A stretch of DNA of 64,000 nucleotides, taken from positions 1 through 64,000 of the IMG/VR virus record IMGVR_UViG_3300020596_000020, one strand, 5' to 3'. Source of the stretch: a virus. Under the pieces are notes generated by a model that saw only the letters and a program-made list of their open reading frames with translations, did no database searches and had not been told where the DNA came from. The position numbers and the translations under genes were made by a program. Of this stretch, positions 3,822-63,854 are shown piece after piece; within the stretch, counting starts at the first letter, position 1; the number at the start of each line of letters is the position of its first letter.

Positions 3822-4580
3822 TTATTCTTCTTTCCAATAGCGTTTTGCGACAATGTTGGCAACGTGACCTTTGGAAACGCCAAACTCGATTGAAAGCTGT
3901 CGATAGCTAATCCGAGTTGGATCCGCTTGAGGCAAGTGTCGCGTGTGATCATAACATAGTCGAATTTCGGTTACCTGTTCACGTGTCAGACAAGCGTTCG
4001 GGTGATTTTCAGCTGCTTGATGCATGCCATTTCGTTCACCACTCACAGCTTCGCCTATACGTTTACGTGTCACCTCAGAATGTAACTTTCCATATGCGTG
4101 ATGTTTTGCACCACTCATGGATTCACTTTTCTGACGTTTCCATTCGTCTGAATGAGTATGTCCAAAGAAGGGATTGGAATTTCCCATCATCATTTCGCTG
4201 ATTTCAGGTCTTTTCTTCCCATACATTGGGTTGTTGCTCCCTGATCTCGCCTCTATCCATTCGCGCGAAGGTTTCCATCCGGTGGCTCCTTCGCCACCGA
4301 CAGTGAGATTTGCTCCCCAGGATTCAGACTCAGAGCTTTCGTGTGTCTTGAACTTCGCGATGAAACGGATTTCTTCTGTGAAGGCGTATGCTTCATCTTT
4401 TGTAGCAAGCACGACTTCGCGTCGTCGGCCGTATTTGCGAGTGATATTTTTCCAATAGACGTTACGTTCAGATCTTTGAACCCGTGAAAGTGTACCCTTC
4501 CCGACATAAAATGGTCGAGGCGTATTTTCAAGCGTCCAATCCACGTAGACAAAGAAGATGTTATTCCTTGACAGGCTCAT
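3822..4580 (-). CDS. GIY-YIG homing endonuclease with NUMOD3 motifs
   Basis: 252 aa from the ATG at 4578-4580, which overlaps the last 20 nt of groEL. The N-terminus has the GIY-YIG core as FFVYVDW followed by PFYVGKG. The middle contains several NUMOD3-like DNA-binding repeats (NNPMYGKKRPE, GNSNPFFGHTHS, HHAYGKLHSE), and the C-terminus has a helix-turn-helix (YRQLSIEFGVSKGHVANI). This is the architecture of a free-standing phage homing endonuclease that cuts an allele lacking it. It is closely similar to the plus-strand genes at 6267 and 20427. The track frame extends upstream inside groEL, but homology begins only at MSLSRNN. Confidence 0.9.
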   Translation of the reverse strand: MSLSRNNIFFVYVDWTLENTPRPFYVGKGTLSRVQRSERNVYWKNITRKYGRRREVVLATKDEAYAFTEEIRFIAKFKTHESSESESWGANLTVGGEGATGWKPSREWIEARSGSNNPMYGKKRPEISEMMMGNSNPFFGHTHSDEWKRQKSESMSGAKHHAYGKLHSEVTRKRIGEAVSGERNGMHQAAENHPNACLTREQVTEIRLCYDHTRHLPQADPTRISYRQLSIEFGVSKGHVANIVAKRYWKEE

Positions 4581-6231
4581 GCACAATTGCGTCCAAAAGT
4601 AGGAAAATGCCGGCGACGCTAGAAGCGTTCCGGAAGGCGCATCGCGACACCTTGACGGGGTCGATGATGCCTGCCTTGCGAAGATCCTTGATCTCACCGA
4701 CGGCAGCGTCCCAGCCGACGTTTGCGGTCGGATCGCTTCGATACGCCAAACTGTTCATCCTGTCACAGACGACGTCGGGTGATTGTCCCGCGTTCTCGAC
4801 GATGCGTCGAAGAGGAGCCTTGCAGGCGTCGAAGACAGCCTTCCATCCACAAGCAACGGCACCCCCGTCGGCGAGGATCTCCTTGACATCTTCGTTGTAC
4901 ATCTGAAGATCGTGTTGGATCTTGAAGAGTGCTGCGCCGCCACCTGGGACAACGCCTTCTTCAAGCGCTGCTTTTGCAGCGTGAAGTGCGTCTTCCAGCC
5001 TGTACTTGCGTTCAACCAGTTCGAGCTCGGTGGCGCCACCGACGCGCACGATGGCCGCACCACTGGAGAGCTTGGCGAGGCGTCGACGAACGGCGTCTGT
5101 TTCTTCCTTCGAAAGGGTGGCGTCGTCGATCTGGCCGCGCAGTTCTGTAATGCGCTCAGCAACACGATCGCTAGCGTCTGCGCGACCGACGATGGTGGTC
5201 ACCTTGGAGTCGACAACCACCTTCTTTGCGTGACCGACATGAATCAGCTTGGTCTCGTCGACCTTGCGACCACTGGAATGAGTGGGATGCTCGCCGCCGA
5301 CCAGCGCGATGAGATCGCGCATCTGAGCGTCGCGGTCGGAGCCAGCCCCGGGGAGTTTGACCGCAACGACACGCAGATTCGCTTGAGCTCGGTTGAGCAC
5401 GAGGCCTTGCATGGCATCCCCATCGATCTCGTCGGCGACGATAAGCAGCGGCTTCTGAGCCTTGTTGCAGTCCTCGAGCAGCGGGATGAGCTCCTTTAAG
5501 GAGGACAGCTTACGATCGGTGATGAGGACGACACAATCCTCGTAAGATGCGCGCATCTTCTCCTGATCTGTGACAAAGTACGGGCTGAGATAGCCTCGGT
5601 CAAAGCGGAGGCCTTCAACAATCTCGAGAGTCGTCGTCGCCGACCGCGCGTTCTCGACAGCTACGACTCCGTCGACGCCGGTCTTGTGCACCGCACGCGC
5701 AACGAGCTCACCGATCTCGACGTCTCCGTTGGCACTGATCGTCGCGATGTCTCTCAGCGCCTCTTCGGTGTTGATGGGCTCCGCGATACTCGCGAGCTCT
5801 TTCAAGACACGCGCGGTCGCCGCGTCCAGTCCTCGCTTGATGTCCGAAGGCTCCATGCCGGCTGCGGCGTACTTGATGACGCTGTTGACGAGCGCGCCGG
5901 TGAGCACACTAGCTGTCGTAGTGCCGTCACCGGCCTCGTCGTTGGTGCGACTAGCAGCCTCACGAACGAGCTGAGCTCCCATACGTTCGGCGGGATCGAC
6001 GGGATCGACCGCCTTGCTGACCGTGACGCCGTCCTTGGTGACGACAGGCGACTCGCCCTCCTCACCCTGGATGATGACGCACTTGCCACGCGGACCCATC
6101 GTGGCACCCACGGTGTCCACTGCGAGGTCTAGACCCCTCTTCAGGGGTCCTACCGCGTCCTTGCCACGCAGGATGACCGAACGCCCAACGCGCGGCCGGC
6201 CAGATTCCTTCTTGAACATTCCGTCGAACAT
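4561..6231 (-). CDS. groEL: GroEL-type chaperonin (Hsp60)
   Basis: 556 aa, about the length of bacterial GroEL. It carries the chaperonin signatures TVGATMGPRGK, the ATP-binding NDEAGDGTTTASVL, the LEDALHAAKAALEEGVVPGGGAAL region with the hydrolysis-linked Asp of EDALH, and GIIDPVKVSRCAFRNAS near the end. The equatorial, intermediate and apical domains all appear present. It lacks the Gly-Gly-Met tail and ends HEPVKE. No GroES-like gene is visible in the window, so it either works with host GroES or alone, as reported for some phage chaperonins. Its likely job is folding virion or replication proteins. Homing endonuclease genes sit at both ends. Confidence 0.97.
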   Translation of the reverse strand: MFDGMFKKESGRPRVGRSVILRGKDAVGPLKRGLDLAVDTVGATMGPRGKCVIIQGEEGESPVVTKDGVTVSKAVDPVDPAERMGAQLVREAASRTNDEAGDGTTTASVLTGALVNSVIKYAAAGMEPSDIKRGLDAATARVLKELASIAEPINTEEALRDIATISANGDVEIGELVARAVHKTGVDGVVAVENARSATTTLEIVEGLRFDRGYLSPYFVTDQEKMRASYEDCVVLITDRKLSSLKELIPLLEDCNKAQKPLLIVADEIDGDAMQGLVLNRAQANLRVVAVKLPGAGSDRDAQMRDLIALVGGEHPTHSSGRKVDETKLIHVGHAKKVVVDSKVTTIVGRADASDRVAERITELRGQIDDATLSKEETDAVRRRLAKLSSGAAIVRVGGATELELVERKYRLEDALHAAKAALEEGVVPGGGAALFKIQHDLQMYNEDVKEILADGGAVACGWKAVFDACKAPLRRIVENAGQSPDVVCDRMNSLAYRSDPTANVGWDAAVGEIKDLRKAGIIDPVKVSRCAFRNASSVAGIFLLLDAIVHEPVKE

Positions 6232-14192: not shown

Positions 14193-14340
14193 GTCGCTTA
14201 AGTTAGCGTCGCTTCAGATCTCGTGCGTGCGTCGCGCGAATTATTGAACGTCCCTAATCAGATTCACACGAACGATGCGCGTCTCACCGATATCAAGATC
14301 CATATTCAGGTGATAGAGCGACGTTCGACATGTTACAAAA
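14193..14340. other. Gap without a confident gene
   Basis: 148 bp between the HExxH membrane protein and the 124-aa unknown. Only a 20-codon minus-strand frame is seen. It may hold a promoter for the 14192 to 11904 operon, but no clear -10/-35 pair was identified. Confidence 0.3.
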
Positions 14341-14715
14341 TTAGAAGAACTTGTACATCTCCGTCCACTCCTGCATCTGCACGTAACGTTGCCCGAAAGA
14401 CACGCCGTCCGCGTTCTTTGTTAGGTCGAAGATCCACCAGCCGTCGCAGCGACGAGACAGCTCCATGAGACCATGTTGCTGACTCATTGACAAACCAGCG
14501 CCGTATGATCTCCCCTCGAACGCTGCGGCGAAGAGAGAGTACTCCAGACTGACTTCCCAGCCAGCACAATATTCCTCTTCGCTAATTTCACTCATCAAGG
14601 CGGCGAGCTCCAACGCAGCCGAGAAGTCGGGACAGTCAGCAGCAGAAAGCTTGCTGTGTGACATGTGCATGCCCCAGAAATCATTCACATCGCACTCTCT
14701 GACCCATTCGCTCAT
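14341..14715 (-). CDS. Unknown protein
   Basis: 124 aa, ATG start, acidic and aromatic. Contains the segments MSEISEEEYCAGWEVSLEY and LMELSRRCDGWWIFD. No recognised domain. It stands apart from its neighbours, with 140-150 bp gaps on both sides. Confidence 0.65.
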   Translation of the reverse strand: MSEWVRECDVNDFWGMHMSHSKLSAADCPDFSAALELAALMSEISEEEYCAGWEVSLEYSLFAAAFEGRSYGAGLSMSQQHGLMELSRRCDGWWIFDLTKNADGVSFGQRYVQMQEWTEMYKFF

Positions 14716-14821
14716 ACAGGCATTTTATCAGATATCAGGGAGATTGCGAACCGTCTCAGTTACACTCGGTCCGACCATTAACTGCTCGTCGGTCAACGAT
14801 CTACTCGTAATCTCTAACACA

Positions 14822-39766: not shown

Positions 39767-40011
39767 TCTTTCCCTCTGTCTTTCGTGATGCAAGAACACT
39801 TCACGTACCCAAGGCCTTGTTCAAAGGTTCCGAGTGATGTTACGGCGTCGACACATTGCGTCTCGCAGGCGTCGAAGTTGACACGCTTGTTGGCTTCGTA
39901 ACCGGTGTCGCAGCTAGCGAACACGAGAAACAACATAAACAGTATCACCATACCCATGAGAACGATGAAGACCGTGCCAAGGATCCGTTGCACGCTCTCC
40001 CAAAACTTCAT
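39763..40011 (-). CDS. Small membrane protein or lipoprotein
   Basis: 82 aa from ATG at 40009-40011 (overlaps the ThyA stop, ATGA). A hydrophobic helix (ILGTVFIVLMGMVILFMLFLVFASC) ends in Cys with a lipobox-like FASC, followed by a Cys-rich part. Could be a lipoprotein or single-pass protein. Function unknown; placed oddly within the nucleotide operon. Confidence 0.6.
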   Translation of the reverse strand: MKFWESVQRILGTVFIVLMGMVILFMLFLVFASCDTGYEANKRVNFDACETQCVDAVTSLGTFEQGLGYVKCSCITKDRGKE

Positions 40012-41009
40012 CGCGTCAACTCCTTGAAGCACGCAATGGACAGGCCTTCGCGGAACCATGTTTCAAGATCTGTCATTCCCAACTTCTTGGCACGATGAGC
40101 GAGCAGAATGTGCACCCAGTCTGTCCACAACACATCACTGAGCATGCGCGCCGCGCTGCCGATCTTCACGAGCTCGTCAGAGGTAGTCGCCGCTCGACCT
40201 TGCGCCTCGAAGATCATCATTTCCTCGATCGGGGGAGGGCCAGGCAATCGAGGCATTGCGTGACGCATCTGTGTCTTGCCGCTCGCGTTGGACAGGATGT
40301 CCTCACACATCTTGTAATGACGATCGTACACATGCATTGAATTGCTGGTATGATAGTAGAAGCCGAGCTCGAGACCAAGCTCCATCGCCATCATCTCCTG
40401 CATAAAGGTAAAGGCGGGGACGTCGAGCGCCGTGCCAAGGATGAGGTCGTTTGAGCGCATCTGAACGATGAGATGCAGCTTCTCATCACGGATGAAAAAT
40501 TGCAAATTGAGCGTGCATGGCATGTCCTTCACAGCCAACATACTATCCTGCGGCTGACGGATATGAATAACGCCGCGACGCGAGTCACGATCGCGAGTGA
40601 GCTCGTCCTTGACGTATTGCCACTGGTTCCAGCTGATGAGCGTGTCTGCCGAAGTCCACGCGTCATGATACTCATGCTGCTTGAAGATGCGCGCACCGTA
40701 CGCCGAGTTGGCGGTCTTGCCATCGTCGCTAATCGCCTCCCAAAACTTGCTATACGTCGAAATCCAAGCAGTTTCGTTGTTGCCCGAGATGTACCACAGG
40801 ATCTCAGCCATAACGTAATCGAGCGGGAAGTTCCGCTCAGGCACGTAGAGTAGTCTGTCACGCGGGTTCGTAATGACGAACGAGGTAAAGAGATTCTCGC
40901 GGATCTTCATGCCGCGAGGCGCCGTCTCATAGTCGTACCCCTCGTACGTCCCCTGAACTAGAGCGTAGTAGGCGTCGGTGAAACTCTCAAAAACCATCAT
41001 CTGTTGCAT
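40008..41009 (-). CDS. thyA: Thymidylate synthase (ThyA)
   Basis: 333 aa. Recognised by MPCTLNLQFFIR (catalytic Cys in PCxL), RSNDLILGTALDVPAFTFMQ and YHTSNSMHVYDRHY. These are the dUMP- and folate-binding signatures of ThyA. It makes dTMP from dUMP with methylene-tetrahydrofolate. The C-terminus is longer than in E. coli ThyA. Together with the deaminase and kinases it forms a dTTP supply pathway. Confidence 0.95.
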   Translation of the reverse strand: MQQMMVFESFTDAYYALVQGTYEGYDYETAPRGMKIRENLFTSFVITNPRDRLLYVPERNFPLDYVMAEILWYISGNNETAWISTYSKFWEAISDDGKTANSAYGARIFKQHEYHDAWTSADTLISWNQWQYVKDELTRDRDSRRGVIHIRQPQDSMLAVKDMPCTLNLQFFIRDEKLHLIVQMRSNDLILGTALDVPAFTFMQEMMAMELGLELGFYYHTSNSMHVYDRHYKMCEDILSNASGKTQMRHAMPRLPGPPPIEEMMIFEAQGRAATTSDELVKIGSAARMLSDVLWTDWVHILLAHRAKKLGMTDLETWFREGLSIACFKELTR

Positions 41010-41763: not shown

Positions 41764-41978
41764 GCGACCTTCTTCCAGTAAACAGCGATGGACACACCAC
41801 GATGGAACAGATCGTCCCTCTGAATGGTGAGATGACCCCTCTGAAGGGAAAACCTCTCGGATGTGATCTCGAAGTACTCATAGATCGAGTGTCCAGGTAT
41901 GAGCGAGCGTTGAAGACTGACTATCCAAAAGAGGCGATCTTCGGCTTCCCACAGGTCACCAATCTTCACAATGTTCAA
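41760..41978 (-). CDS. Small protein of the GxLW group
   Basis: 72 aa, N-terminus VKIGDLWEAEDRLFWIVSLQ. Tandem neighbour of 41554, overlapping it, and also overlapping the epimerase stop by 4 nt. The two adjacent members suggest local duplication of this small domain. Confidence 0.6.
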   Translation of the reverse strand: MNIVKIGDLWEAEDRLFWIVSLQRSLIPGHSIYEYFEITSERFSLQRGHLTIQRDDLFHRGVSIAVYWKKVA

Positions 41979-42910
41979 AACAACGGCGACTCGAGTGCCC
42001 AGAGACGTGTCTCCTCAAGCCCAGGCCAGAAGTCGGTAAGCGGCTTGTAGCCGAGCACTCTCTGACAGGCCGAGATGTCCGCCTGGGTCGCACGCACGTC
42101 GCCGGCGCGCCAGTCGGCATGCTTGACACGTGACTGGATCTCAGGGTGTTTGGAGGCGAAGTGCTTGAGAATCTGCTTATTACTGACGCTCCCACCGGTG
42201 CCAGCGTTGAAGGCTTCGCCACGAAGACGACCTTGGTGAGCGGCCACTCGCACGAAGATGTCCACGACGTTGTCCACATGCGTCATGTCACGTGTCTGTG
42301 AGCCGTCTCCGTCGCTTCGAAGCTCTCCGTCATGCTTGATTGCGTGCAGCCATGACGAGACGACCGTCCCGTACGCGCCATTAGCAAGCTGACGCGGGCC
42401 GAAAACATTAAAGGGACGAACGCACGCAGTGTCCATGTCGTACAGATCCGCGAACATGACACAGTAGTCCTCGCCGATCATCTTCTGAAGAGCGTAGGGC
42501 GACTTCGGGTCGCGAGGCGCGCTCTCCTTAGTAGGAAGCTGCTGCGCGCCGCCGTAGACTGAGCTAGACGACGTGAAGACGAACCTTCCGACCACACCGC
42601 GGCACGCTTCCAATAGTTTCACGGTGTTGCCGACGTTCTCGTCGTTCGTCTCAGCCGGGTGCTCCACCGAGTAGGACACACGAGGACGTGCTGCGAGGTG
42701 GAACACGGTGTCAAACTGTGACTGCTTGATGAAGCGAAGCACGCTCGGATCGGCGTAGTTGCTGTACAGCGGGACCGCTCCAGTCGGAACGAACTCGACG
42801 CGACCGTTCGAAAGATCATCGACCACCACAACCTGGTGGCCCTCTTTGACGAGGCGTTCAGCGAGGTGAGAACCGATGAAGCCCGCGCCGCCCGTTACCA
42901 AAGTTTTCAT
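41975..42910 (-). CDS. NAD-dependent sugar epimerase/dehydratase (extended SDR)
   Basis: 311 aa. Rossmann motif TGGAGFIGSHLAERL, active-site SSSSVYGG and YALQKMIGE (YxxxK), and substrate region RPFNVFGPRQ, the layout of UDP-glucose 4-epimerase-like extended SDRs. It interconverts nucleotide sugars; the exact substrate is uncertain. With the 58062 and 62481 genes it points to phage-encoded surface-glycan changes. Confidence 0.9.
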   Translation of the reverse strand: MKTLVTGGAGFIGSHLAERLVKEGHQVVVVDDLSNGRVEFVPTGAVPLYSNYADPSVLRFIKQSQFDTVFHLAARPRVSYSVEHPAETNDENVGNTVKLLEACRGVVGRFVFTSSSSVYGGAQQLPTKESAPRDPKSPYALQKMIGEDYCVMFADLYDMDTACVRPFNVFGPRQLANGAYGTVVSSWLHAIKHDGELRSDGDGSQTRDMTHVDNVVDIFVRVAAHQGRLRGEAFNAGTGGSVSNKQILKHFASKHPEIQSRVKHADWRAGDVRATQADISACQRVLGYKPLTDFWPGLEETRLWALESPLF

Positions 42911-45611: not shown

Positions 45612-46097
45612 ATGAACATCAAACTACTAAGAGAGTACGTCAAACGCGTGCTTGCCGAATCTGTCTGTCCGGGCTGCGGGAACAAGGATGCGTACATTGG
45701 AATAAACGCCGTCGAGTGCCCGAACGCCTCGTGTAGCTTCTTCTCGAAGAGACAACAAGACGACATTCAGGCGGTCGGGGCCGATGACGAGGACGGCGAT
45801 TACGAAGAGTGCGGCTGGTGTGATAACGACATCTCGGGGTGTGGTGGACATTGCGAGAAGTGCGGCGATGGCGACATCGACATGCTACAAGCGTTAGACG
45901 ATGAAGCCAACAAAGCGTTAGACGATGAAGCCAACAAAGTGAGTTACGAGCACTGTGGAATGTGCGGCTTGAAAGCGGTCGACCCTGACACACAGAAGTG
46001 CACAAATTGCAGCAACGGACACTTCCCGGACTGTGCGGGGTGCGGTGGAGCGGTTGACAACCCAACGGCTTGTCAAAACTGCGGCCACCCTAGCTGA
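45612..46097 (+). CDS. Zinc-ribbon-rich protein
   Basis: 161 aa. At least four CxxC pairs (VCPGCGNK, ECGWCDND, HCEKCGDG, HCGMCGLK, NCSNGHFPDCAGCG, CQNCGH) indicate a string of zinc ribbons. The N-terminus MNIKLLREYVKRVLAES carries the LRxxxKRVL helix of other proteins here. A 24-bp direct repeat gives two copies of ALDDEANK. Possibly a nucleic-acid-binding or virion protein; role unknown. Confidence 0.65.
   Translation: MNIKLLREYVKRVLAESVCPGCGNKDAYIGINAVECPNASCSFFSKRQQDDIQAVGADDEDGDYEECGWCDNDISGCGGHCEKCGDGDIDMLQALDDEANKALDDEANKVSYEHCGMCGLKAVDPDTQKCTNCSNGHFPDCAGCGGAVDNPTACQNCGHPS
45891..45938. repeat. 24-bp tandem direct repeat
   Basis: Two perfect copies of a 24-nt unit within the zinc-ribbon gene encode two ALDDEANK octapeptides. 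The identity implies a recent duplication. Confidence 0.85.
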
Positions 46098-46304
46098 TCA
46101 CGGGCGAACGATCTCCCACCCGAAATTTTCCCACTCGCTCAGGTCCCAGTCAAACTTTGAGATGGACCCGGCCGGCCGACGATCGTCTCCCGCGTCCTCG
46201 ATGACTAGCCCCCACTGGCCGTAGTCATCGATGATGACGAACGACGCTCGTGTAAACGCGAACACGAGGTCGGTGTAGAGGATAACCGTGCCCTTGAGAC
46301 TCAC
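46098..46304 (-). CDS. Small beta-rich protein
   Basis: 68 aa (MSLKGTVILYTDLVFAFTRA), beta-rich and Trp-rich with DLSEWENFGWEIVRP. Overlaps the DnaE C-half stop by 4 nt. Function unknown; similar in size to the GxVY group. Confidence 0.6.
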   Translation of the reverse strand: MSLKGTVILYTDLVFAFTRASFVIIDDYGQWGLVIEDAGDDRRPAGSISKFDWDLSEWENFGWEIVRP

Positions 46305-48448
46305 AGATCGGTTCCGTCAACCTCTCGCATGTCACGGAGCGAGCAACTGAAACCGAGTTTGTCTTTCTTCACTCTCACGACGTAACAAGCGTACTTCTTG
46401 AGCTCGCTAATCTGATGCTCGGCGGTGCTCCACACGAACATGCGATGGATGGCGCCGTCCGAGCCGTAGCACGCTAATTGGAAGAAGTTGTTGCCTGTGC
46501 GCGCGGTCTTTTTCTTACCGTCAGACAGTACCATCCAATACGTTCCGTACTTCGCAGTGGTGCATTCCTCGAGAGGCGGGATGTCGTGCGCCTTGAGCTG
46601 CATGCGTAAATCATCGTCGAGCAACGCATCGGGGTCGATAGAGCCATAGAGCTCGATCTGATTCTTCACGATCTCATCACGCGTCCAGTCAGTCAACGTC
46701 TTCGACTCCTCGATGAGCTCGGCGAGTCGGCGAGTGTGATACTCGGGGTCCTTTTTCAAGCGTTTCTTGAGTTCGGCCTGACCATCGACAATGACATGAT
46801 GTAGCTGCTTGTAGTTCTCGAACGTTCTCCCCGGTCCGACGATTTGCATAGAGTCGAACGCCCCGAGTGTCACAAGTGCCCCGAGCGATTTCGAATTAAA
46901 CTTACTGTGTCGCCACGTTCCGTTCTCATCCCAGAGCAGGTCCTCCAACTTACGATACGGTCGTTTCACCAGCAGCTCGTTCACAGCCGAGGTTCCGACG
47001 CCGGTGACCGTGAGGAAAGACGGGTAGAAGGTTCGGTTGTCAGACGCGATCTCCCATTCGCGATTCGAGCGGTTGATGTCAACCTTTGCGACGTCGTAAC
47101 CCATCGCCTTGATCTCGGCCAGCGCACGTCGACGCGAATCAGGATCACCGAGCATGGATTCGACGTACGAGCAGAGCCATTCCGGCTCGTAGTAAGTCAT
47201 CAACCAGGCACACTGATACGAGATATATCCGTACGAGTACGAGTGGGCGCGGTTGAAACCGTAGGCGGCGAACGCCTGTAGGTCGTCGTAGAGCAACTCC
47301 GCCTTTGCGCGTGGATAGCCTTTGGCCTCGGCGCCGTCCACGAACTTCTCGTGCAGCTCGTCGGTCAGTGTCTTCCCCTTGGATGCGTCCTTGGTAGTGC
47401 GTTTCAGGATGGCCTTGCGCAGCTTGTCTGCCTCGACCTCGCTGAAGCCTGAGAGCTTCATTGAAATCTCCATGATCTGTTCTTGATAGATCACGAACCC
47501 CATCGTATCTTCAAGACATTCGTTGACCGCGGCGTGACCGTAGTCCTTCTTCACACCATCACGACGTGCTTTGATGTAGAGCTTGTCGACGTCGGCAGCT
47601 AACGGTCCGGGTCGGTAGATCGCGGTCGCGGCTGCCAGGTCGTGAACGCTACGAGGGTCAAGGTCAGTGATGAATCGCTGCGTGCTTGGATTCGTGAACT
47701 GAAAGATGCCGGCAAAGCGAGACTCACGGAAGACATGGTTGAACACGTCGCTCAGGTTCGGGTCGATGCGACTCGGCGTCAGATTATCGTCGTACCACTC
47801 CTTCACCTGCGCAAAGGTTGGGTTTCGGATCCCGCTGTGACGCTTCAGGATACGACGCACGCACCGCTCAATGATACGTAACGTGTCGAGGCCGAGGAGG
47901 TCGTACTTGACTAAGCCGTACGGGCTGAGACCCTTCATCGCCATGCCTTCACTCCAAGGCGTCTGTAGGTCTCCGCGGACGCTGATGAGTGGCATGATGC
48001 CGTCAGGGTCGTCGTGAACGATGATGCCGCCGGCATGCTTGCCGACAGCCTTCGTCTGCCGACCAAGGATCTTCACGTCGTTGTCGATCGCCGGGTACTT
48101 CTTCATCAGAGCGCGGAAAGCCGGCGAGTGCTCCATGCAGCCCTCGTACGTCAGCTGAACAGAACCCTTGGTGTCGTCGCCGGTATGAAGATGCGGCTTC
48201 ACCTCCTGATCGAGATTCTTGGTGGCGTCGTTGACCTCGTTGAACTCGAGCCCGTGCAGCTTGGACACGTCCTTCACGAGCGACTTCATCTGCAGACCGT
48301 TGAAGTTGCTGATGGGGACGATCGTCTTCTCGCCGAACTCCTTCTTTAGCAGGTCGATGACTTTGTCGCGATCAGAGACGTCGCAGTTGTGTGTCCCAAT
48401 CCAACGATCTTCTTTCATAAAAGAAGAAATTCGATAACTTTTACCCAC
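46301..48448 (-). CDS. dnaE: DNA polymerase III alpha, C-terminal half with split-intein C-fragment
   Basis: 715 aa, GTG start with an AGGAG ribosome site. Residues 1-21 (MGKSYRISSFMKEDRWIGTH plus N) are the intein C-fragment ending in His-Asn. The C-extein starts at Cys22 and continues CDVSDRDKVIDLLKKEFGEK, which matches the region just after PDxD in DnaE. Later DnaE parts are clear: LVKYDLLGLDTLRIIERC (third catalytic Asp), PGPLAADVDKLYIKARRDGV, GFVIYQEQIMEISMKLSGFS and FNRAHSYSYGYISYQCAWLM. Trans-splicing to the 49450 product is needed to build the active site. An endonuclease gene lies between the halves. Confidence 0.95.
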   Translation of the reverse strand: MGKSYRISSFMKEDRWIGTHNCDVSDRDKVIDLLKKEFGEKTIVPISNFNGLQMKSLVKDVSKLHGLEFNEVNDATKNLDQEVKPHLHTGDDTKGSVQLTYEGCMEHSPAFRALMKKYPAIDNDVKILGRQTKAVGKHAGGIIVHDDPDGIMPLISVRGDLQTPWSEGMAMKGLSPYGLVKYDLLGLDTLRIIERCVRRILKRHSGIRNPTFAQVKEWYDDNLTPSRIDPNLSDVFNHVFRESRFAGIFQFTNPSTQRFITDLDPRSVHDLAAATAIYRPGPLAADVDKLYIKARRDGVKKDYGHAAVNECLEDTMGFVIYQEQIMEISMKLSGFSEVEADKLRKAILKRTTKDASKGKTLTDELHEKFVDGAEAKGYPRAKAELLYDDLQAFAAYGFNRAHSYSYGYISYQCAWLMTYYEPEWLCSYVESMLGDPDSRRRALAEIKAMGYDVAKVDINRSNREWEIASDNRTFYPSFLTVTGVGTSAVNELLVKRPYRKLEDLLWDENGTWRHSKFNSKSLGALVTLGAFDSMQIVGPGRTFENYKQLHHVIVDGQAELKKRLKKDPEYHTRRLAELIEESKTLTDWTRDEIVKNQIELYGSIDPDALLDDDLRMQLKAHDIPPLEECTTAKYGTYWMVLSDGKKKTARTGNNFFQLACYGSDGAIHRMFVWSTAEHQISELKKYACYVVRVKKDKLGFSCSLRDMREVDGTDL
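48386..48448 (-). other. Split-intein C-fragment (about 21 aa)
   Basis: Encodes the first 21 residues of the DnaE C-half, ending GTHN before Cys+1. The His-Asn pair is the intein's block G, and Cys+1 belongs to the native DnaE sequence. The fragment is shorter than usual C-fragments (about 30-40 aa) because the block F-like segment lies in the other half. Confidence 0.75.
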
Positions 48449-49466
48449 GCTTAATCTCCTGTGACAGACGATCTATTTCGTGTTTGAAATTGACTTTTGT
48501 GGCTGCTTCCCAACATATCAACACGCGACAACCAAGTTTACTCTCTATACGACGTACACGAGATTCGTTTTTAAGACGAATCTGTCCTGCTGTCATACCG
48601 GAATGAAGGAGTTTATCGGCAGTGTAGACGCTTGGATTTGCATGCCAATAGTCGCCATAATACTCAACTGCACAGTCTCGATCTGGAAGGTAAAGATCGA
48701 GACTGTAACACCAACCTTCTTCTCTATTTGAGACAAAGAACTGTCTATTCATCCAAGAATATGATTTCTCGTTCTCAAATTCCTTAAGAAGAGCGTAAAT
48801 AAATTCTTCTTCTTTTGCTGACGAACCGGTCGTATGACTGTTAGGCCATTCAACGTACGGATTCACATTAGCAAACCAATTATTTTTCCCATGCGTTGAG
48901 AGCATGTTTGCTTTATGCAGATCGCGCACATTGCTAGACATCATTGGGTACGAGACACCCAATCGTTGTTCACATGTAGCTTTGTATTTCGCTTGAATCA
49001 ATGTTGACTGAAGTGGTCTATTGACACCATGACGATATCTCATAGTTGCTGTGAATTTATCTTGATATTCGTCAGTGCTATAAAAGGCTGATTTTAGACA
49101 AGATTCACAAAGAAATGTTCTCTTATGCTGACGACGTGCTGTGTTCCCCTCCATTACGTGGAGTTTTCCGCATGTTGGACACTTGAAATTGAATGCCAAA
49201 GAACCTAAAGCATACTTTTTCGCATTCTCATCGACGAAATGACATTTTTCGTCATCAAGCACGAATTCCACGTTGTTGATCAGTAACCCGGTAGTCATCA
49301 CACGCGTAGAAACTGCGTGCTTCACATTTTCGTAGCTGAACCATGGTGTTTCGAACAGTCCGCTAAACTGTTTTCTGAGCAGATTTATTTCGCGCGAGGA
49401 TTCGTCTTTGAGTTGATACCCGTGTTTCGCAGCTAACACTGACGAGAAGTTACTTCGATACTTCAT
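48441..49466 (-). CDS. Vsr-like (EDxHD) homing endonuclease between the DnaE halves
   Basis: 341 aa from ATG at 49464-49466, overlapping the DnaE N-half by 17 nt and the C-half start by 8 nt. An N-terminal zinc finger (CPTCGKLHVM, then FLCESCLK) is followed by a DNA-binding middle and a Vsr-like nuclease core: SLDLYLPDRDCAVEYYGDYWH, then RLKNESRVRRIESKLGCRVL. Such EDxHD endonucleases are known beside split inteins in fractured phage and marine viral genes, including DnaE. Its position exactly at the split fits that arrangement. Confidence 0.85.
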   Translation of the reverse strand: MKYRSNFSSVLAAKHGYQLKDESSREINLLRKQFSGLFETPWFSYENVKHAVSTRVMTTGLLINNVEFVLDDEKCHFVDENAKKYALGSLAFNFKCPTCGKLHVMEGNTARRQHKRTFLCESCLKSAFYSTDEYQDKFTATMRYRHGVNRPLQSTLIQAKYKATCEQRLGVSYPMMSSNVRDLHKANMLSTHGKNNWFANVNPYVEWPNSHTTGSSAKEEEFIYALLKEFENEKSYSWMNRQFFVSNREEGWCYSLDLYLPDRDCAVEYYGDYWHANPSVYTADKLLHSGMTAGQIRLKNESRVRRIESKLGCRVLICWEAATKVNFKHEIDRLSQEIKRG

Positions 49467-51399
49467 CAACGTCTAAATAGTCATTGACTTTGATAATCAC
49501 GTCACCCAAACGTGGATCACTTTCATCCACGTAGACATCGAACGGAATGACACGAAAAGTGTGAGAATGTTCGACCTCAATGTCCACTAACGTTCGTATA
49601 CCATGCAAAATTATGATACCAACCACGACGCAATTCTCAGATCCCTTGAGAGAGTGCCCGATTAACAGTTGTTTGGCACGAACAACTGTGTTATCATCAA
49701 GTACCATCTTGTGCTCGGCGTTACACACAATCGTTCCATAGCATGAATCTTGTTTCACTAGTAGTTCGTAGATTATCTCATCTTTTCTAGCAGATCTTGC
49801 GTTCACGGTCAAGACTTTACGATGAGCGCCTTCGATATCGATCACAACGTCGTTTTTTTCAACTGTCTCGATGCGCTTATAACTTCCATCTGTCATCATG
49901 ATCAAATGACGAGCATCTAAACAATCGATGTCTGGAACGTCAGTGCGAGCCAACGACATGAAGCGGGCGAAGATGAGATTGTTAGAAACAGGATCGACGT
50001 CTGTGATGCCGAGCACGAAGTTGACGAGGCTGCCGGCTCCGGACCCGCGACCCGGACCGACGAGACAATCCTTCTTGGCAACATCAAGGATCGCCTTCAG
50101 AGTGAGGAAGTAAATGGAGTTGTCGAGCTTCTTGATGACGGACAGCTCGTTCTTGAGTCGCGCGACGTAGGCCGGTAGATGGGCCAACCGCTTCGCGCGC
50201 ATGCCCTCCTTGCAACTCTCCACGAGCGTCTGGAACGGCGTCATGTCGGGGCGAACGCCGAAGCTAGGAAGCTTCACGCTCGTGTCGATGGTCACGTCGC
50301 CGATGACGTCGTGCGCGACGTGCCAGGCGTTCTCGATGGACTCGGCTACGACCGCGTCGTCGTAGAACGCGTGACCCTCCTTGTACAGGTTGTACGCATC
50401 CCACATCTGATCCGCGTTCTTTGGATAGAGCTCGCACTTGAGCTGCTTCACGTCAGCCGGGATGGAGTCCGGACCGAGCTCCGAACCGCCGCGCCCCATG
50501 CGGCCAAGCAGCTTGTACACCTCGCGTGCGCGCCACAGATCGGGGCTACAGTAGTGCGAGTCAGCCGTAGCGACCAACTTGACGCCGTTCGACTTTGCGA
50601 ACTCAAGCAGCACACGGTTGGTGAGGTGTTGAGGCGCTAAGCGGTTGAACTGGATCTCAGCGAACACGTTGTCGCGCCCGACGGCGTCCGTGAGTCTGTC
50701 GAACTCGTTGCCGACGGCTCGCATAACGGCGTCGCGCTTCCCAGGTTCGTCCAGGATATCTGGGGTCAACTCGTCGAACGACTTACCGGCGAACTGAGAG
50801 TACGTCGCCCAAGATGGCACGCCGGCAACGCAGGCCGTAGACACTACGACGTCCTCGCCATGTTCCTTCAGCATTGCCGAGTCGATGCGCGGGAAGCGGT
50901 AATAACCCTCGCGCGCACTGCGAGACACCAAGCGAAAGATGTTCTCGAGGCCCTTCTGCGACTTAGGAAGCAGCACGAGGTGGTGGCGACGCTCGACCGG
51001 GTCGAGGTATTTGCCGTTACGCTTGGACGCGTCCTCGTCTTCCACGGCGACGCCCGTGTCATCTTCGTCATTGTCCGGACGCTTGACTTTGGCAGCCTCG
51101 CGCTCTTCCTTGCGCACTTGGTCACGCGTGACTTTCGCTGCGGCCCAGTCCTTCAGACTCGGGATGTAGTATGCTTCGACCCCGGGAATGAACTTCATGG
51201 GTCGACCGTTTTTATTCAACTCCTGTGTTTTTTGGTAGCATTCAGGGAACGAGTTCATGTTTCCATGATTCGTCATAGCCATCGAGCTCATGCCATTGTC
51301 AGCAGCGAACTGGATGTGATCTCCTCCATCACCGAAGCCGTCGTAGATGCTTTTCCCATCGTGTGCGTGCAAGTTCGCGAACTTCTTCGGATTTACCAT
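49450..51399 (-). CDS. dnaE: DNA polymerase III alpha, N-terminal half with split-intein N-fragment
   Basis: 649 aa. Residues 1-492 are the N-extein: a PHP domain (NLHAHDGKSIYDG, MTNHGNMNSFPE, TADSHYCSP) and the polymerase palm/fingers start (GPGRGSGAGSLVNFVLGITD), ending DVPDID. Residue 493 is Cys, opening the intein N-fragment (CLDARHLIMMTDG). Block B-like CNAEHKMVLDDNTVV and block F-like TLVDIEVEHSHTFRV follow, to residue 649. The break falls in the PDxDxD motif, so both halves are inactive until joined by protein trans-splicing with 46301. Confidence 0.95.
   Translation of the reverse strand: MVNPKKFANLHAHDGKSIYDGFGDGGDHIQFAADNGMSSMAMTNHGNMNSFPECYQKTQELNKNGRPMKFIPGVEAYYIPSLKDWAAAKVTRDQVRKEEREAAKVKRPDNDEDDTGVAVEDEDASKRNGKYLDPVERRHHLVLLPKSQKGLENIFRLVSRSAREGYYRFPRIDSAMLKEHGEDVVVSTACVAGVPSWATYSQFAGKSFDELTPDILDEPGKRDAVMRAVGNEFDRLTDAVGRDNVFAEIQFNRLAPQHLTNRVLLEFAKSNGVKLVATADSHYCSPDLWRAREVYKLLGRMGRGGSELGPDSIPADVKQLKCELYPKNADQMWDAYNLYKEGHAFYDDAVVAESIENAWHVAHDVIGDVTIDTSVKLPSFGVRPDMTPFQTLVESCKEGMRAKRLAHLPAYVARLKNELSVIKKLDNSIYFLTLKAILDVAKKDCLVGPGRGSGAGSLVNFVLGITDVDPVSNNLIFARFMSLARTDVPDIDCLDARHLIMMTDGSYKRIETVEKNDVVIDIEGAHRKVLTVNARSARKDEIIYELLVKQDSCYGTIVCNAEHKMVLDDNTVVRAKQLLIGHSLKGSENCVVVGIIILHGIRTLVDIEVEHSHTFRVIPFDVYVDESDPRLGDVIIKVNDYLDVDEVSK
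49453..49923 (-). other. Split-intein N-fragment (157 aa)
   Basis: Begins with the catalytic Cys1 at codon 49921-49923 after PDID. Carries block A, a block B with the conserved His (CNAEH), and near its end a block F-like TLVDIEVEHSHTFRV followed by about 30 more residues. Having block F in the N-fragment is unusual for natural split inteins. Confidence 0.8.
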
Positions 51400-51439
51400 A
51401 CACTTCTATTGTCTGTCACTCGACCTCACACCCGAACAC

Positions 51440-51513
51440 TGGAGCCACCGACCGGACTTGAACCGGTATAACGAAGATACAAACTTCGGGTCCTGCCATT
51501 AAACGACAGTGGC
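51440..51513 (-). tRNA. tRNA-Thr (anticodon TGT)
   Basis: 74 nt including encoded CCA. Acceptor GCCACTG/CGGTGGC (one G-U), D-stem GTTT/GGAC, anticodon stem CGAAG/CTTCG with loop TTTGTAT (anticodon TGT, U33 and A37 present), T-arm ACCGG-TTCAAGT-CCGGT. G1-C72 and C2-G71 fit threonine identity. It reads ACA codons. Located just upstream of the DnaE N-half. Confidence 0.92.
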
Positions 51514-51530
51514 TAATCGCTGCTTTCCTC

Positions 51531-51773
51531 TTACTCTATCAGACGCCGCGGCGAACGAATCAGTTCCCACGTCGAAGAGATATTCGCCTCATCGTTGCGA
51601 ACGTTGACCACCTTACCTGTTGTCAGTCGTAGAGATACGTGTCCCTTGCGGGTTCTGCTGCGCTCAAGAATCAAGATCACTAGCGCGCCCTCGCGCCTGA
51701 CAAGGATGTCACCTTTACACAATGACGCCCAAGTTGGGGCCATTTCATCGGACGAATTCCATCTAAACGACAT
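51531..51773 (-). CDS. Small beta-rich protein
   Basis: 80 aa (MSFRWNSSDEMAPTWASLCK). Contains KGDILVRREGALVILILERS, a small strand-rich domain loosely like the GxVY group. Adjacent to the 51773 gene. Function unknown. Confidence 0.6.
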   Translation of the reverse strand: MSFRWNSSDEMAPTWASLCKGDILVRREGALVILILERSRTRKGHVSLRLTTGKVVNVRNDEANISSTWELIRSPRRLIE

Positions 51774-52123
51774 TAGTTGTCTTCACAGAGATCACGCCAC
51801 CAGCGCTTGAGAAAAGACACGTTAGCCTCAGCAAGCAACGCATCGATCGTCAACAGTTCGTCGGCACAGATCGCTCCCGAGATGTAGGCGTCGATGATCA
51901 CCTGCACCGGGATCTCCTTGGCTAGCGCGCGTAGCAGCGATCGACGTGTATCGACAGATCGCAGGGCGACCAGGAACTCGGGACTGATCCATCCACGATT
52001 CGTCACCGTTTCATACGTGACACCAGCTCGATGTACGAGATCGTCTCGGACCGTCTTCAAACTCTCGTTCATGAGTTTCAACTGCACGACGCAATCACAC
52101 AGGCGTCGTTCTCCCAGCCCCAC
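51773..52123 (-). CDS. Unknown helical protein
   Basis: 116 aa from GTG at 52121-52123, which follows a strong GGAGG site in the end of the upstream gene; the longer frame to 52174 is rejected. Helical, with SVDTRRSLLRALAKEIPVQV. No recognised domain. Confidence 0.6.
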   Translation of the reverse strand: MGLGERRLCDCVVQLKLMNESLKTVRDDLVHRAGVTYETVTNRGWISPEFLVALRSVDTRRSLLRALAKEIPVQVIIDAYISGAICADELLTIDALLAEANVSFLKRWWRDLCEDN

Positions 52124-53248: not shown

Positions 53249-55687
53249 TTAGTAAAGAATACCGCCGCTCGTCGGTACGTATTTCTTTGGGCCGTAATCC
53301 CAACAGAAACCGACCGTTGCTGAAGATGTGTTCGCAGCAATTGTGCCAACGCCGATGTTGTTGTTCAAAGGCGTTACCACGGTCTTGCCAGTGGCTGTTG
53401 GATTTGGGAAGATCGCTCCCCACACACCAGAAACACCGCGCAGCCTGCTGTCATTCAAGTAAATGATCATCCCTTTCCACGACAGCGGCACAGGGTTTTT
53501 GTTGGTGTAGGTGTAAACTTTACACCCGCCACTACCCCAATCGTACGTCTTCACTGCGGTGACAACGAGAGGGAGGCAACCCTTTGCGCTGACTGTTCCC
53601 TTGACACTTGGACACAGATCGTTGACGTCGAGCACCCCATCGCCGTCAGTGTCGGTCGTCGGAGAAACGTATGTGCACGACTGACTGAGTGTGGGTGTGC
53701 CAGAGCATACAGTCGGATTCGAGGTCACCGTTCGCGTTTGCGTTCCGTTAGATTGGCAAACGTTCCAAGTCGAGTACGTGAACGTGCAAACAGGAGGAAC
53801 ATATGTACACGACTGTGTGAGCGACGCAGACGTCCCAACACAACCGACCGGCAACGAAGTGACGGTTCGCGTCTGCGTTTCCGTTGACGAACACGATGAC
53901 CACGTTGAGTATGTGAAGACACACGACGGAGGAGGCAAAGGCGCGCTGTCAGTCATCCAACCCGCGTTCATGAAGGGCAGCAAGCTGTTGATGAGATCAT
54001 ATTTGGTGCCGGTCGTCCCCACGTCGTTGTCCCAGTGACTACCAGGCTTCTCGATGAACGTCACCGGGAACCCGCGAGTCTTCAAGATGTTCATATTGTT
54101 ACGCACGTTGGCGATCGCGTAGTACGTGATGGTATCGCCGGTGTGAGCAAGGTGAGCGATGTTGAGCTTCCAGCTCGCGGTCGTGGACGCCGTCATGGCA
54201 GTCACGCTCGGATTGGTGTTCTCGAAGATGAGTCCAGAGAACAAATTTGCGTTCTTGAACGCGAGCTCGTACCCGATGTCACCGCCGGACGAGTATCCTC
54301 CGAGAATCACGCGACGCGGATCGACGTTAAAATGTGTCTTCATGTTCGCGATGGCGGCGAGGATCTTCGCACCGTCGGTCGCGTAGTTGGACCAACAAGC
54401 TCCCTCACGACCACCGACAGCAAGTGTGATCCAGTTCTGTGCGCCGCCAGGCGACACCATCCAGGCGTCGTACTGCGCCTGTCCACCGCATCCGTGGAGC
54501 CAGACGAGTAGTGAGATCGGAGTGGCGTGCGTCGCGTCGTAACTCGCTGGGACGTACGCCCAGTTGGTCTGACCGCTGTTGGTCGTAAAGACTGTGCTCT
54601 TCGTGTAGGCGATGGGGTTTGTCACCGGCGACGTTGTGGTCGGCGACAAAGTAAGGAACGGTGTGAGCCAGGCTGTCTGTGGGCGATCGACGCCTGCTTT
54701 CGGCTCGAGCGTGAGCATATACTCACCCCACCACGGTCCAGCAGCCCACCATGCCCAGCCAACGAGCACGTCAGAGTTGACGGTCGCGTACGTGAGGAAG
54801 TCCGTCACAGCAGCCTTACACGTCGACGTGTTCGGTGTTCCGATCTCGCCGACCCAGATCTTCTTGCCGTTCTGTCGAGCCCATGCCACGACTGCGGTCA
54901 TGCGAGTCGATCCAATAGTGGAGTTGACGCAATCTGTGCCGCCGCCACTACCGTCACTGTCGAAGTAGTTGTGCACCTCGAAGATCGAGTTGTTACCGCT
55001 GTCCACGTACTTGAGAAGCGCGACGGAGTTGGCCGTCCCGTACCAGGTCGCAGTCCAGCTGTGAGCGCCTGACCACGCGTTGCCAGGCACCGACACCACA
55101 TTCGTCGCTCCCGTGGCTCGAATGGCCGCGGTGGCCGCGTTGGCAGTGATCACCCACTGCTCGGTGGGCATGTCGTGCGGCTCGTTGACGAGGCCGAACA
55201 CAACCTTGAGATTGGACTTGTACTTGACGGCGAGTCGCGACCAGAGGTTCGCGAACACACTGGAGGGGACTTGTGTCGTGCCTACAACGCCATCATAGTA
55301 ACGGGCGAAGTTGTGCGGATTAAGAACGACCGTCAAACCTTTCGACGTCGCGTAGACGACGATGGCGTTGAGATCAGTCTCGTACGTCGGCACAAACGCG
55401 CCGTTGGCTGTCGGCTGCAGACGTTCCCATAAAAAACCGACACGAACCGTGTTCATGCCCTTACTAGCGAAATAGTCGACTTCGCTTGTTGTCGGCCAAA
55501 CATAATCGGTGCCCTTGACGCCAGGCTTTGCAGTACCAAACTCGGCTCCAGCGAGATTGATGCCGTGCATCGCGGGAAGACTGACTTCAGTCTTGGGGAA
55601 GTCGCTGCGACCGATATGCGGGTAACAGCCGACGGTTATCAGCACGGTGCTGACGATAAGAATGAGATATCGGATGATCTTGTTCAT
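53249..55687 (-). CDS. Secreted GH5 glycanase-esterase multidomain protein
   Basis: 812 aa. N-terminal signal ending near Cys21 (LILIVSTVLITVGC). Residues about 35-350 are a GH5 glycoside hydrolase, with acid/base Glu in GLVNEPHD (E169) and nucleophile Glu in WVGEIGTP (E281). Residues about 360-590 form an alpha/beta-hydrolase esterase (GCGG loop and GGYSSGGD, Ser466). Two thrombospondin type-1-like repeats follow (about 600-690; CVFTYSTWSSC and CTFTYSTWNVC), then a calcium type-3 repeat (DTDGDGVLDVNDLCP) and a CBM2-like C-terminus. This is a carbohydrate-attacking secreted enzyme rarely seen in a phage. Terminator follows. Confidence 0.9.
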   Translation of the reverse strand: MNKIIRYLILIVSTVLITVGCYPHIGRSDFPKTEVSLPAMHGINLAGAEFGTAKPGVKGTDYVWPTTSEVDYFASKGMNTVRVGFLWERLQPTANGAFVPTYETDLNAIVVYATSKGLTVVLNPHNFARYYDGVVGTTQVPSSVFANLWSRLAVKYKSNLKVVFGLVNEPHDMPTEQWVITANAATAAIRATGATNVVSVPGNAWSGAHSWTATWYGTANSVALLKYVDSGNNSIFEVHNYFDSDGSGGGTDCVNSTIGSTRMTAVVAWARQNGKKIWVGEIGTPNTSTCKAAVTDFLTYATVNSDVLVGWAWWAAGPWWGEYMLTLEPKAGVDRPQTAWLTPFLTLSPTTTSPVTNPIAYTKSTVFTTNSGQTNWAYVPASYDATHATPISLLVWLHGCGGQAQYDAWMVSPGGAQNWITLAVGGREGACWSNYATDGAKILAAIANMKTHFNVDPRRVILGGYSSGGDIGYELAFKNANLFSGLIFENTNPSVTAMTASTTASWKLNIAHLAHTGDTITYYAIANVRNNMNILKTRGFPVTFIEKPGSHWDNDVGTTGTKYDLINSLLPFMNAGWMTDSAPLPPPSCVFTYSTWSSCSSTETQTRTVTSLPVGCVGTSASLTQSCTYVPPVCTFTYSTWNVCQSNGTQTRTVTSNPTVCSGTPTLSQSCTYVSPTTDTDGDGVLDVNDLCPSVKGTVSAKGCLPLVVTAVKTYDWGSGGCKVYTYTNKNPVPLSWKGMIIYLNDSRLRGVSGVWGAIFPNPTATGKTVVTPLNNNIGVGTIAANTSSATVGFCWDYGPKKYVPTSGGILY

Positions 55688-62480: not shown

Positions 62481-63782
62481 TTAGATCGTGACGAGAATGA
62501 TGTCTTTTCGTAGCTTTGACGCGTCAACGACGCCTTTGAGGTCCAAAAGAACGCCGTTCGGTGCAAGACACACGTTTGCACGGTCTTCAAGTGTGTCGAG
62601 GTACGTTGCGTGCGGCACTGCCACGACGAGCGCGTCTAGATTTCGTTTTTCGAACACAGCAACACATGACTCTTTTGTGCCTGTAAACTTGTATGTGTCG
62701 TCGCTTGGATCAATCGCCAACGGGTTATAGGTGATGGAAGCGATCGGATCATGCACACTGACTTCACATCCACGGGCGCGCAAGGATTTCACTAGGTCAA
62801 CAACTTTGCTGTTACGCGTGTCCTTCACACCTTTCTTGAACGTGTAACCCAGCACCCCTACTTTGGCGCCGCGGTAGAAACCGCGTGTGGAAGCCTCGAG
62901 CGAGCTGATGAGCCGTTTCGCGACGTGTTTCGGCATGTGCTCATTGACACGACGCGCCAAAGACGCGAGTCTAAGCGGCTCACCGACGCTATCGGCGAGC
63001 ATCATGAGGTAGTACGGGTCGACGCCGACGCAGTGACCGCCGACGAGTCCTGGCTTAAACTTGAGAAAGTTCCACTTCGTCCCAGCTGCTTCAAGCACGT
63101 CCTTCGTGTTGATATCGACCTTGTTGAAAAGCTTGGCGAGTTCGTTTACAAGTGCAATGTTGACATCGCGTTGGATGTTCTCGATGAGCTTCGCGGCTTC
63201 GGCGACGCGTATGGTGGGCGCCTTGTGAATCTCCGTCACCTCACTATACACGGCCGCGACGCGTTCGAGCGTCTCCGCGTCCTCGCCTGCGACGATCTTG
63301 ACAACTTTCTCGAGTGTGTGCTCGACATCGCCAGGGTTAATGCGCTTCGGCGAGTAACCTAATCTGAAGTCTTTTCGGTCGAGCTTCGACGCCAGAACAG
63401 GAGCACAGATGTCCTCCGTCACGCCAGGGAAGACCGTTGACTCGTAAACGACGACGTCGCCTTTTTTGAGCATTGTGGCGACGATCTCAGACGCTCTCAG
63501 TAGAGGACTGAAATCTGGGGACTTGTCGTCGTTGATCGGAGTGGGAACGGCGACGATGTAAAAGGTCGTCTCCGCCATGTCGGTGAAGTTGCACGCGAAC
63601 TTCAGAGTCGTGTTGCAGAGTTTCTCAAGTGGAGTCTCGCCTGTCCGATCGTGCCCACGCATGAGTTCGGCGATCCGCACAGTATCGACGTCGTACCCGA
63701 TGACGTCAGGAAACTTGTGCGCGAGCGCTAGCGCCAACGAGAGCCCGACGTAACCAAGACCAATAACCGCGATCCGTTCCAT
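62481..63782 (-). CDS. Nucleotide-sugar dehydrogenase (TviB/WbpA-like)
   Basis: 433 aa from ATG at 63780-63782 with an AAGGAG site. NAD motif VIGLGYVGLSLALAL, the middle FSPLLRASEIVATMLKKGDV and STVFPGVTED, and the active Cys in LVGGHCVGVDPYYL are typical of UDP-sugar 6-dehydrogenases of the Vi/O-antigen type. It oxidises UDP-GlcNAc, UDP-GalNAc or UDP-glucose to a uronate. With the 58062 decarboxylase and 41975 epimerase it suggests the phage makes unusual surface sugars. Confidence 0.93.
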   Translation of the reverse strand: MERIAVIGLGYVGLSLALALAHKFPDVIGYDVDTVRIAELMRGHDRTGETPLEKLCNTTLKFACNFTDMAETTFYIVAVPTPINDDKSPDFSPLLRASEIVATMLKKGDVVVYESTVFPGVTEDICAPVLASKLDRKDFRLGYSPKRINPGDVEHTLEKVVKIVAGEDAETLERVAAVYSEVTEIHKAPTIRVAEAAKLIENIQRDVNIALVNELAKLFNKVDINTKDVLEAAGTKWNFLKFKPGLVGGHCVGVDPYYLMMLADSVGEPLRLASLARRVNEHMPKHVAKRLISSLEASTRGFYRGAKVGVLGYTFKKGVKDTRNSKVVDLVKSLRARGCEVSVHDPIASITYNPLAIDPSDDTYKFTGTKESCVAVFEKRNLDALVVAVPHATYLDTLEDRANVCLAPNGVLLDLKGVVDASKLRKDIILVTI

Positions 63783-63854
63783 TAATACTCCTTGACGAGG
63801 TTGAAATACAGCGAGACGACAAGTGTTATTAAAGAACAACGACGCCGATTATAT

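What the first reader, a model, noticed from the sequence alone, without database searches (positions are those of the whole stretch)
48386..49923. DnaE broken between its two catalytic aspartates by a split intein with an endonuclease in the gap
The N-half ends PDID then Cys1 of an intein; the C-half begins with an intein fragment ending HN then CD. In DnaE the PDxDxD motif carries two catalytic Asp. The split leaves one Asp in each half, so neither product alone can polymerise. A Vsr-like EDxHD endonuclease gene sits exactly in the gap. This matches the fractured-gene plan known from environmental phages, but the site choice makes trans-splicing essential for replication.
Basis: partly seen in the sequence, partly recalled or inferred. 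Interest (0 to 1): 0.9.

Follow-up and report, generated by a model that had tools for sequence, protein, structure and literature searches.

The report
Phage DNA polymerase broken by split intein
In this uncultured phage the gene for its DNA-copying enzyme is broken inside the active site by a selfish element, and the two protein halves must probably be welded together by an intein whose second piece, only about 20 amino acids long, is shorter than in any natural split intein described in the papers I could read.

Summary
A phage dnaE (G000, 81.6 kb virus record) is encoded as two ORFs, N-half 51399..49450 and C-half 48448..46301, minus strand. A free-standing Vsr-fold endonuclease-like ORF (49466..48441) lies between them. 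The two extein ends join without gap or overlap (PDID|C1...HN|CDVSD), and the foreign segment is sharply bounded (37-42% GC against 56-59%).

(1) The break is not between the two PDxD aspartates. Both (Taq D463/D465) are in the N-half; the third metal ligand (D618) is in the C-half.
(2) The intein is not split at the usual place. The N-part (157 aa) already contains block F; the C-part is about 20 aa carrying only the last hairpin and HN|C. Every other C-part I recovered contains block F.
(3) The endonuclease has Asn where relatives have the last Asp of the EDxHD signature.

The closest relative (72-76% identical) is uninterrupted at this site but fractured at another (GRG^S). Related viral dnaE genes are broken at several further conserved motifs. 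Best reading: a fractured gene restored by protein trans-splicing, with a new natural split position resembling engineered IntC15/16 inteins. Splicing was not shown.

The parts
49924..51399 (-). dnaE N-extein, 492 aa (PHP domain and palm up to PDID, both PDxD catalytic Asps)
   Evidence: Pfam PHP and DNA_pol3_alpha; alignment to Taq Pol III alpha; 52% identical to intact viral dnaE L003
49450..49923 (-). Intein N-part, 157 aa plus stop: Cys1, block A, block B His, block F (LVDIEVEHSHTF), then a 30-aa tail predicted disordered
   Evidence: Hom_end_hint E = 2.8e-7; alignment with related N- and C-parts; Hint fold by model and Foldseek
48441..49466 (-). Free-standing endonuclease-like ORF, 341 aa; Zn-ribbon-like N-part, Vsr-fold C-domain with E, D, H of EDxHD but Asn in place of the last Asp
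   Evidence: PHROG homing endonucleases E = 4.6e-11; DUF7487; alignment of relatives; Vsr best PDB fold match
48386..48448 (-). Intein C-part, GTG start plus 20 aa (GKSYRISSFMKEDRWIGTHN); last hairpin and His-Asn, no block F
   Evidence: Translation and frames; alignment to the end of the L127 C-part, shuffle p = 0.0004
46301..48385 (-). dnaE C-extein, 694 aa starting with Cys+1 (third catalytic Asp in KYDLLGL, fingers, HHH)
   Evidence: Pfam; alignment to Taq D467 onwards with D618 inside; 44-45% identical to L003

Best explanation
A fractured phage replicase gene. A mobile element, a class-1-type intein coding sequence with a free-standing Vsr-fold homing endonuclease gene, entered dnaE at PDID^CDV in the catalytic motif. 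The intein is now split at an unusual place, after block F and before the last beta-strand. The N-half protein carries an almost complete Hint domain, and the C-half carries a peptide of about 20 residues that supplies the final hairpin, the catalytic His-Asn and Cys+1. When the halves meet, the peptide completes the Hint fold, Cys1 and Cys+1 drive acyl transfer, Asn cyclises, and an ordinary contiguous DnaE (...PDIDCDVSD...) results. Shown: gene order, exact extein junction, intein motifs, predicted Hint fold, split position, foreign composition, intact alleles elsewhere, purifying selection on both exteins. Inferred: that splicing occurs, that it is needed for replication, and that the element moved by endonuclease-driven homing.
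For: Extein ends meet exactly at Taq D465/T466 with nothing lost. Cys1, block B His, block F Asp and His, His-Asn and Cys+1 are all present. N-part resembles N-parts of canonical split inteins in related viral dnaE genes, some of which pass the curated intein_Nterm and intein_Cterm cut-offs. Hint fold predicted, with the last 28 residues disordered, i.e. the last strand is not provided by the N-part. Insert 37-42% GC between exteins of 56-59%. Closest relative is uninterrupted at this site and L003 is an intact single ORF. dN/dS about 0.17 for both exteins against L131. Engineered inteins with 15-16 aa C-parts split between strands 10 and 11 do trans-splice (PMC2664965).
Against: No experiment. 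The 20-aa C-part matches no intein model, and without THN its similarity to the L127 end is weak (p = 0.06). Block B has Asn in place of the usual Thr/Ser three residues before His. The N-part carries a 30-aa tail of unknown role. No second locus with this split position was found. The extein selection estimate covers time before the insertion as well as after. The N-part model is of moderate confidence (mean pLDDT 67.8).
Confidence: 0.75

Rival explanations
1. The intein is a decayed remnant. It no longer splices; the two DnaE halves either reassemble non-covalently (genes in pieces) or are dead, and the phage relies on another polymerase.
For: Very short C-part with no model match, extra tail on the N-part, and Asn at the last endonuclease signature position fit decay. 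Another viral dnaE (G002, L075) is broken with only a Hint-like tail lacking Cys1, so pieces without an obvious intein exist.
Against: All splice-site residues are kept in both tails, the exteins are complete to the residue at the junction, both exteins are under purifying selection, reading frames and a good ribosome-binding site are intact, and no other A-, B- or C-family polymerase was seen in the record.
Confidence: 0.2
2. The break is an assembly or sequencing artefact: a normal cis-intein with an internal or frameshifted piece.
For: A metagenome-derived record; raw reads not available here.
Against: No block F is hidden in any frame upstream of the C-part; three overlapping ORFs each with a start and stop, and uniform composition across the insert; the same overall gene order recurs in other viral dnaE genes.
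Confidence: 0.03
3. An intron with an endonuclease gene, removed from RNA.
For: Endonuclease ORFs are common in phage introns (general knowledge).
Against: No intron match in Rfam at E <= 1 for 46000-52000. The tails carry intein motifs that start exactly at the extein boundary, which an intron would not need.
Confidence: 0.02

Closest known systems
Fractured genes with split inteins and free-standing EDxHD homing endonucleases (Dassa et al. 2009, NAR 37:2560; full text not held, content from memory)
   Same: Host gene in two ORFs, an intein piece on each, an endonuclease gene in the gap, phage-like metagenomic source
   Different: Here the break is after block F, the C-part is about 20 aa, and the last signature Asp of the endonuclease is Asn
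Atypical naturally split inteins: AceL-TerL, PolB16 OarG
   Same: Natural split at a non-standard place, from metagenomes
   Different: Those have a very short N-part (15-25 aa) and a long C-part; here it is the reverse (PMC10189870, PMC11766414)
Engineered split DnaE inteins, Npu IntN123/IntC15 and Ssp IntN144/IntC16
   Different: Man-made from cyanobacterial inteins; the present one is natural and sits at another site of DnaE
Cyanobacterial split DnaE intein (Ssp, Npu)
   Same: Split intein in DnaE
   Different: Standard split with 35-36 aa C-part, halves at distant loci and no endonuclease gene between them; different insertion site (from memory, not aligned here)
Split intein and nuclease-like ORF in dnaE of L131 (IMGVR_UViG_3300035661_001867)
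   Same: Closest dnaE relative (72-76%), similar N-part (33% identical), same kind of gene order
   Different: Inserted at GRG^SGAG, canonical split with 35-aa C-part containing block F

Membership tests
Fractured gene arrangement | Host gene in two ORFs that together cover the whole protein | tested here: met
Fractured gene arrangement | Each half ends in an intein fragment | tested here: met
   Clear for the N-part; for the C-part rests on HN|C and alignment to the L127 end
Fractured gene arrangement | Free-standing homing endonuclease gene in the gap | tested here: met
   PHROG homing endonuclease hits and Vsr-like fold; activity not tested
Class 1 intein | Cys/Ser at position 1, block B His, block F Asp, terminal Asn preceded by His, Cys/Ser/Thr at +1 | tested here: met
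   block B has Asn in place of Thr
Class 1 intein | Hint fold | tested here: met
   N-part model against PDB inteins, E down to 8.5e-6; the complex with the C-part was not modelled
Class 1 intein | Protein splicing activity | not testable with these tools
   Needs expression of the two halves
Canonical naturally split intein | Split between blocks B and F, C-part of about 35-40 aa | tested here: not met
   Block F is in the N-part; C-part 20 aa, at most 28 before a stop
Atypical naturally split intein (short N-part) | N-part of 15-30 aa with long C-part | tested here: not met
   N-part 157 aa
EDxHD (Vsr-like) homing endonuclease | Vsr-like fold | tested here: met
   Best PDB match Vsr, probability 0.97, though E = 0.04
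EDxHD (Vsr-like) homing endonuclease | Complete E-D-x-H-D signature | tested here: not met
   E, D and H kept, last D is N; all nine aligned relatives have D. The assignment of this column to the signature is mine
Cyanobacterial split DnaE intein | Same insertion site in DnaE | not tested
   Not aligned here; from memory the cyanobacterial site lies far downstream of the PDxD motif

The most novel reading that the evidence does not exclude
A natural split intein of the reverse atypical kind: a near-complete Hint domain on one protein completed by a peptide of about 20 residues that supplies the last hairpin, i.e. nature using the split position known to me only from engineered IntC15/16 inteins, within a virus lineage whose replicase gene is repeatedly broken in its active-site motifs by different inteins.
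Probability: 0.5. Interest if true: 0.65.

Novelty: new variant of a known kind. Interest (0 to 1): 0.55.

Why it matters
Natural split inteins are described with a 35-40 aa C-part or, rarely, a very short N-part. Short C-parts have been made by engineering because they can be chemically synthesised. A natural one would give an evolved starting point and show that the break need not lie at the usual endonuclease position. The viral clade is also a good system for asking why several inteins repeatedly break one replicase in its catalytic motifs, and whether trans-splicing times replication.

Tried and rejected
Close relatives of the N-part alone: none in viral contigs, genome contigs or cultured phages. 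Patterns for an intein after PD[IF]DC: 58 bacterial DnaE hits, none with an insert (57 native continuations by the automatic rule, the other reads CDMES without an insert), and 8 viral hits, none DnaE. These patterns fix some codons, so they are partial tests. The idea that the C-part duplicates the end of the N-part (TFRVIPF/SYRISSF) is not above chance, p = 0.48. Intron: no Rfam match. Block F hidden by a frameshift: none. The alignment still holds the mistyped first residue, outside the columns used. Dassa 2009, Aranko 2014 and Caspi 2003 are not held.

Full report
CHECK. The window lies in an 81,644-base linear virus record of IMG/VR. On the minus strand three overlapping ORFs occur: N-half 51399..49450 (649 aa), endonuclease-like 49466..48441 (341 aa) and C-half 48448..46301 (715 aa). 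The C-half starts at GTG behind AGGAG. Pfam DNA_pol3_alpha is cut at position 105/110 of 260. The N-half aligns to Taq Pol III alpha up to PDID (D463, D465) and the C-half from D467 onwards with D618 inside. Active-site aspartates of the C-family are E. coli D401, D403 and D555 (PMC3919608), so the first two are in the N-half and the third in the C-half.

THE INTEIN. The N-half tail of 157 aa starts with Cys directly after PDID. It matches Hom_end_hint at E = 2.8e-7 (31.2 bits, cut-off 32.1) and is 30-33% identical to N-parts of split inteins found in other viral dnaE genes. An AlphaFold model with a 13-row alignment (mean pLDDT 67.8) finds intein Hint domains in the PDB (MchDnaB-1, gp41-1, NrdJ-1). 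Unlike its relatives, this N-part does not stop after block B. It runs on through LVDIEVEHSHTFRV, which aligns with block F of the C-parts of L126, L127, L131, L153 and L007 and of the contiguous intein of L012. Residues 130-157 have pLDDT below 50. The C-part has room for at most about 28 residues before an in-frame stop (20 after the GTG), and no block F lies upstream in any frame. It ends RWIGTHN|C and aligns to the last hairpin of the L127 C-part (p = 0.0004 by shuffling; 0.06 without THN). So the break is after block F and before the last strand. Published natural split inteins have C-parts of 35-40 aa or, atypically, very short N-parts (PMC10189870; PMC11766414). C-parts of 15-16 aa, split between strands 10 and 11, were engineered and splice (PMC2664965).

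THE ENDONUCLEASE. The ORF hits PHROG homing endonucleases (4.6e-11) and DUF7487. Its C-terminal domain model (pLDDT 87) has Vsr as best PDB match, probability 0.97 but E = 0.04. In an alignment with nine relatives the last Asp of the signature is Asn here, so cleavage activity is doubtful.

SURROUNDINGS AND RELATIVES. The inserted segment is 37-42% GC between exteins of 56-59%. The closest relative, L131/L051, is 72-76% identical. It is uninterrupted at PDVDVDVSD but broken at GRG^SGAG by a split intein with a 35-aa C-part and a nuclease-like ORF, and a DinG-like helicase gene follows dnaE in both. Over 452 and 689 aligned codons, dN/dS is about 0.17 for both exteins. A more distant relative, L003, has an intact 1205-aa dnaE. 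In the loci aligned, most dnaE genes are one ORF, but breaks occur at NPHR^SGAPDID (L126-L129), before IVFQE (L123, fractured; L012 has a contiguous intein at the same place), at GRG^S (L131, L153), at GFN[RK]^SHA (L007, L153, L151) and at a site with a Hint-like tail without Cys1 (G002, L075). The loci were fetched by similarity and several are near-duplicates, so no frequency should be read from them.

MECHANISM. The most likely course is trans-splicing: the short C-part completes the Hint fold of the N-part, and DnaE is restored as PDIDCDVSD. A Cys at this position is native in many clostridial DnaE proteins, so the spliced product would be normal. Splicing, mobility and need for replication were not shown. 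No other A-, B- or C-family polymerase was found in the record, which may be incomplete.

VERDICT. A new variant of the fractured-gene kind: the arrangement is known, and the split position is new as far as the papers I could read go. The main rival is that the intein has decayed and the halves act without splicing, or not at all. Interest 0.55.

Noticed in passing
L047:779-4823 and 13892-14815; L007:7950-10988 (one record, G002): dnaE in three pieces. Piece 1 ends in a Hint-like tail without Cys1 or block A, followed by a 607-aa endonuclease-like ORF; pieces 2 and 3 lie about 11 kb away and are joined by a canonical split intein with its own endonuclease ORF. How pieces 1 and 2 are joined is unexplained.
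   Followed up: partly
L075:10900-12752: The same Hint-like tail without Cys1 after the palm domain of dnaE, with a 537-aa endonuclease-like ORF.
   Followed up: partly
L126:9001-13938; L127:1486-6381; L128, L129: dnaE fractured by a canonical split intein at NPHR^SGAPDID, three residues upstream of the PDID motif that is broken in the window.
   Followed up: yes
L153:8080-11481: One dnaE with two split inteins: at GRG^SAAG with a gap of under 200 bases and no endonuclease, and at GFNK^SHAV with an endonuclease-like ORF.
   Followed up: partly
L215 (OM634661.1, Bacillus phage vB_BauM_KLEB27-3): A cultured phage whose dnaE is annotated in two CDS with an HNH endonuclease between; no intein seen in the tails and no Rfam intron match.
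   Followed up: partly
window 51440..51513: A tRNA-Thr (TGT) gene lies directly upstream of the dnaE N-half.
   Followed up: no
window 4561..6231; 53249..55687; 62481..63839; 41975..42910; 40008..41009: The phage record encodes a chaperonin of the Cpn60 family, a GH5 cellulase-like protein, a UDP-glucose/GDP-mannose dehydrogenase, a GDP-mannose dehydratase-like protein and a thymidylate synthase.
   Followed up: no
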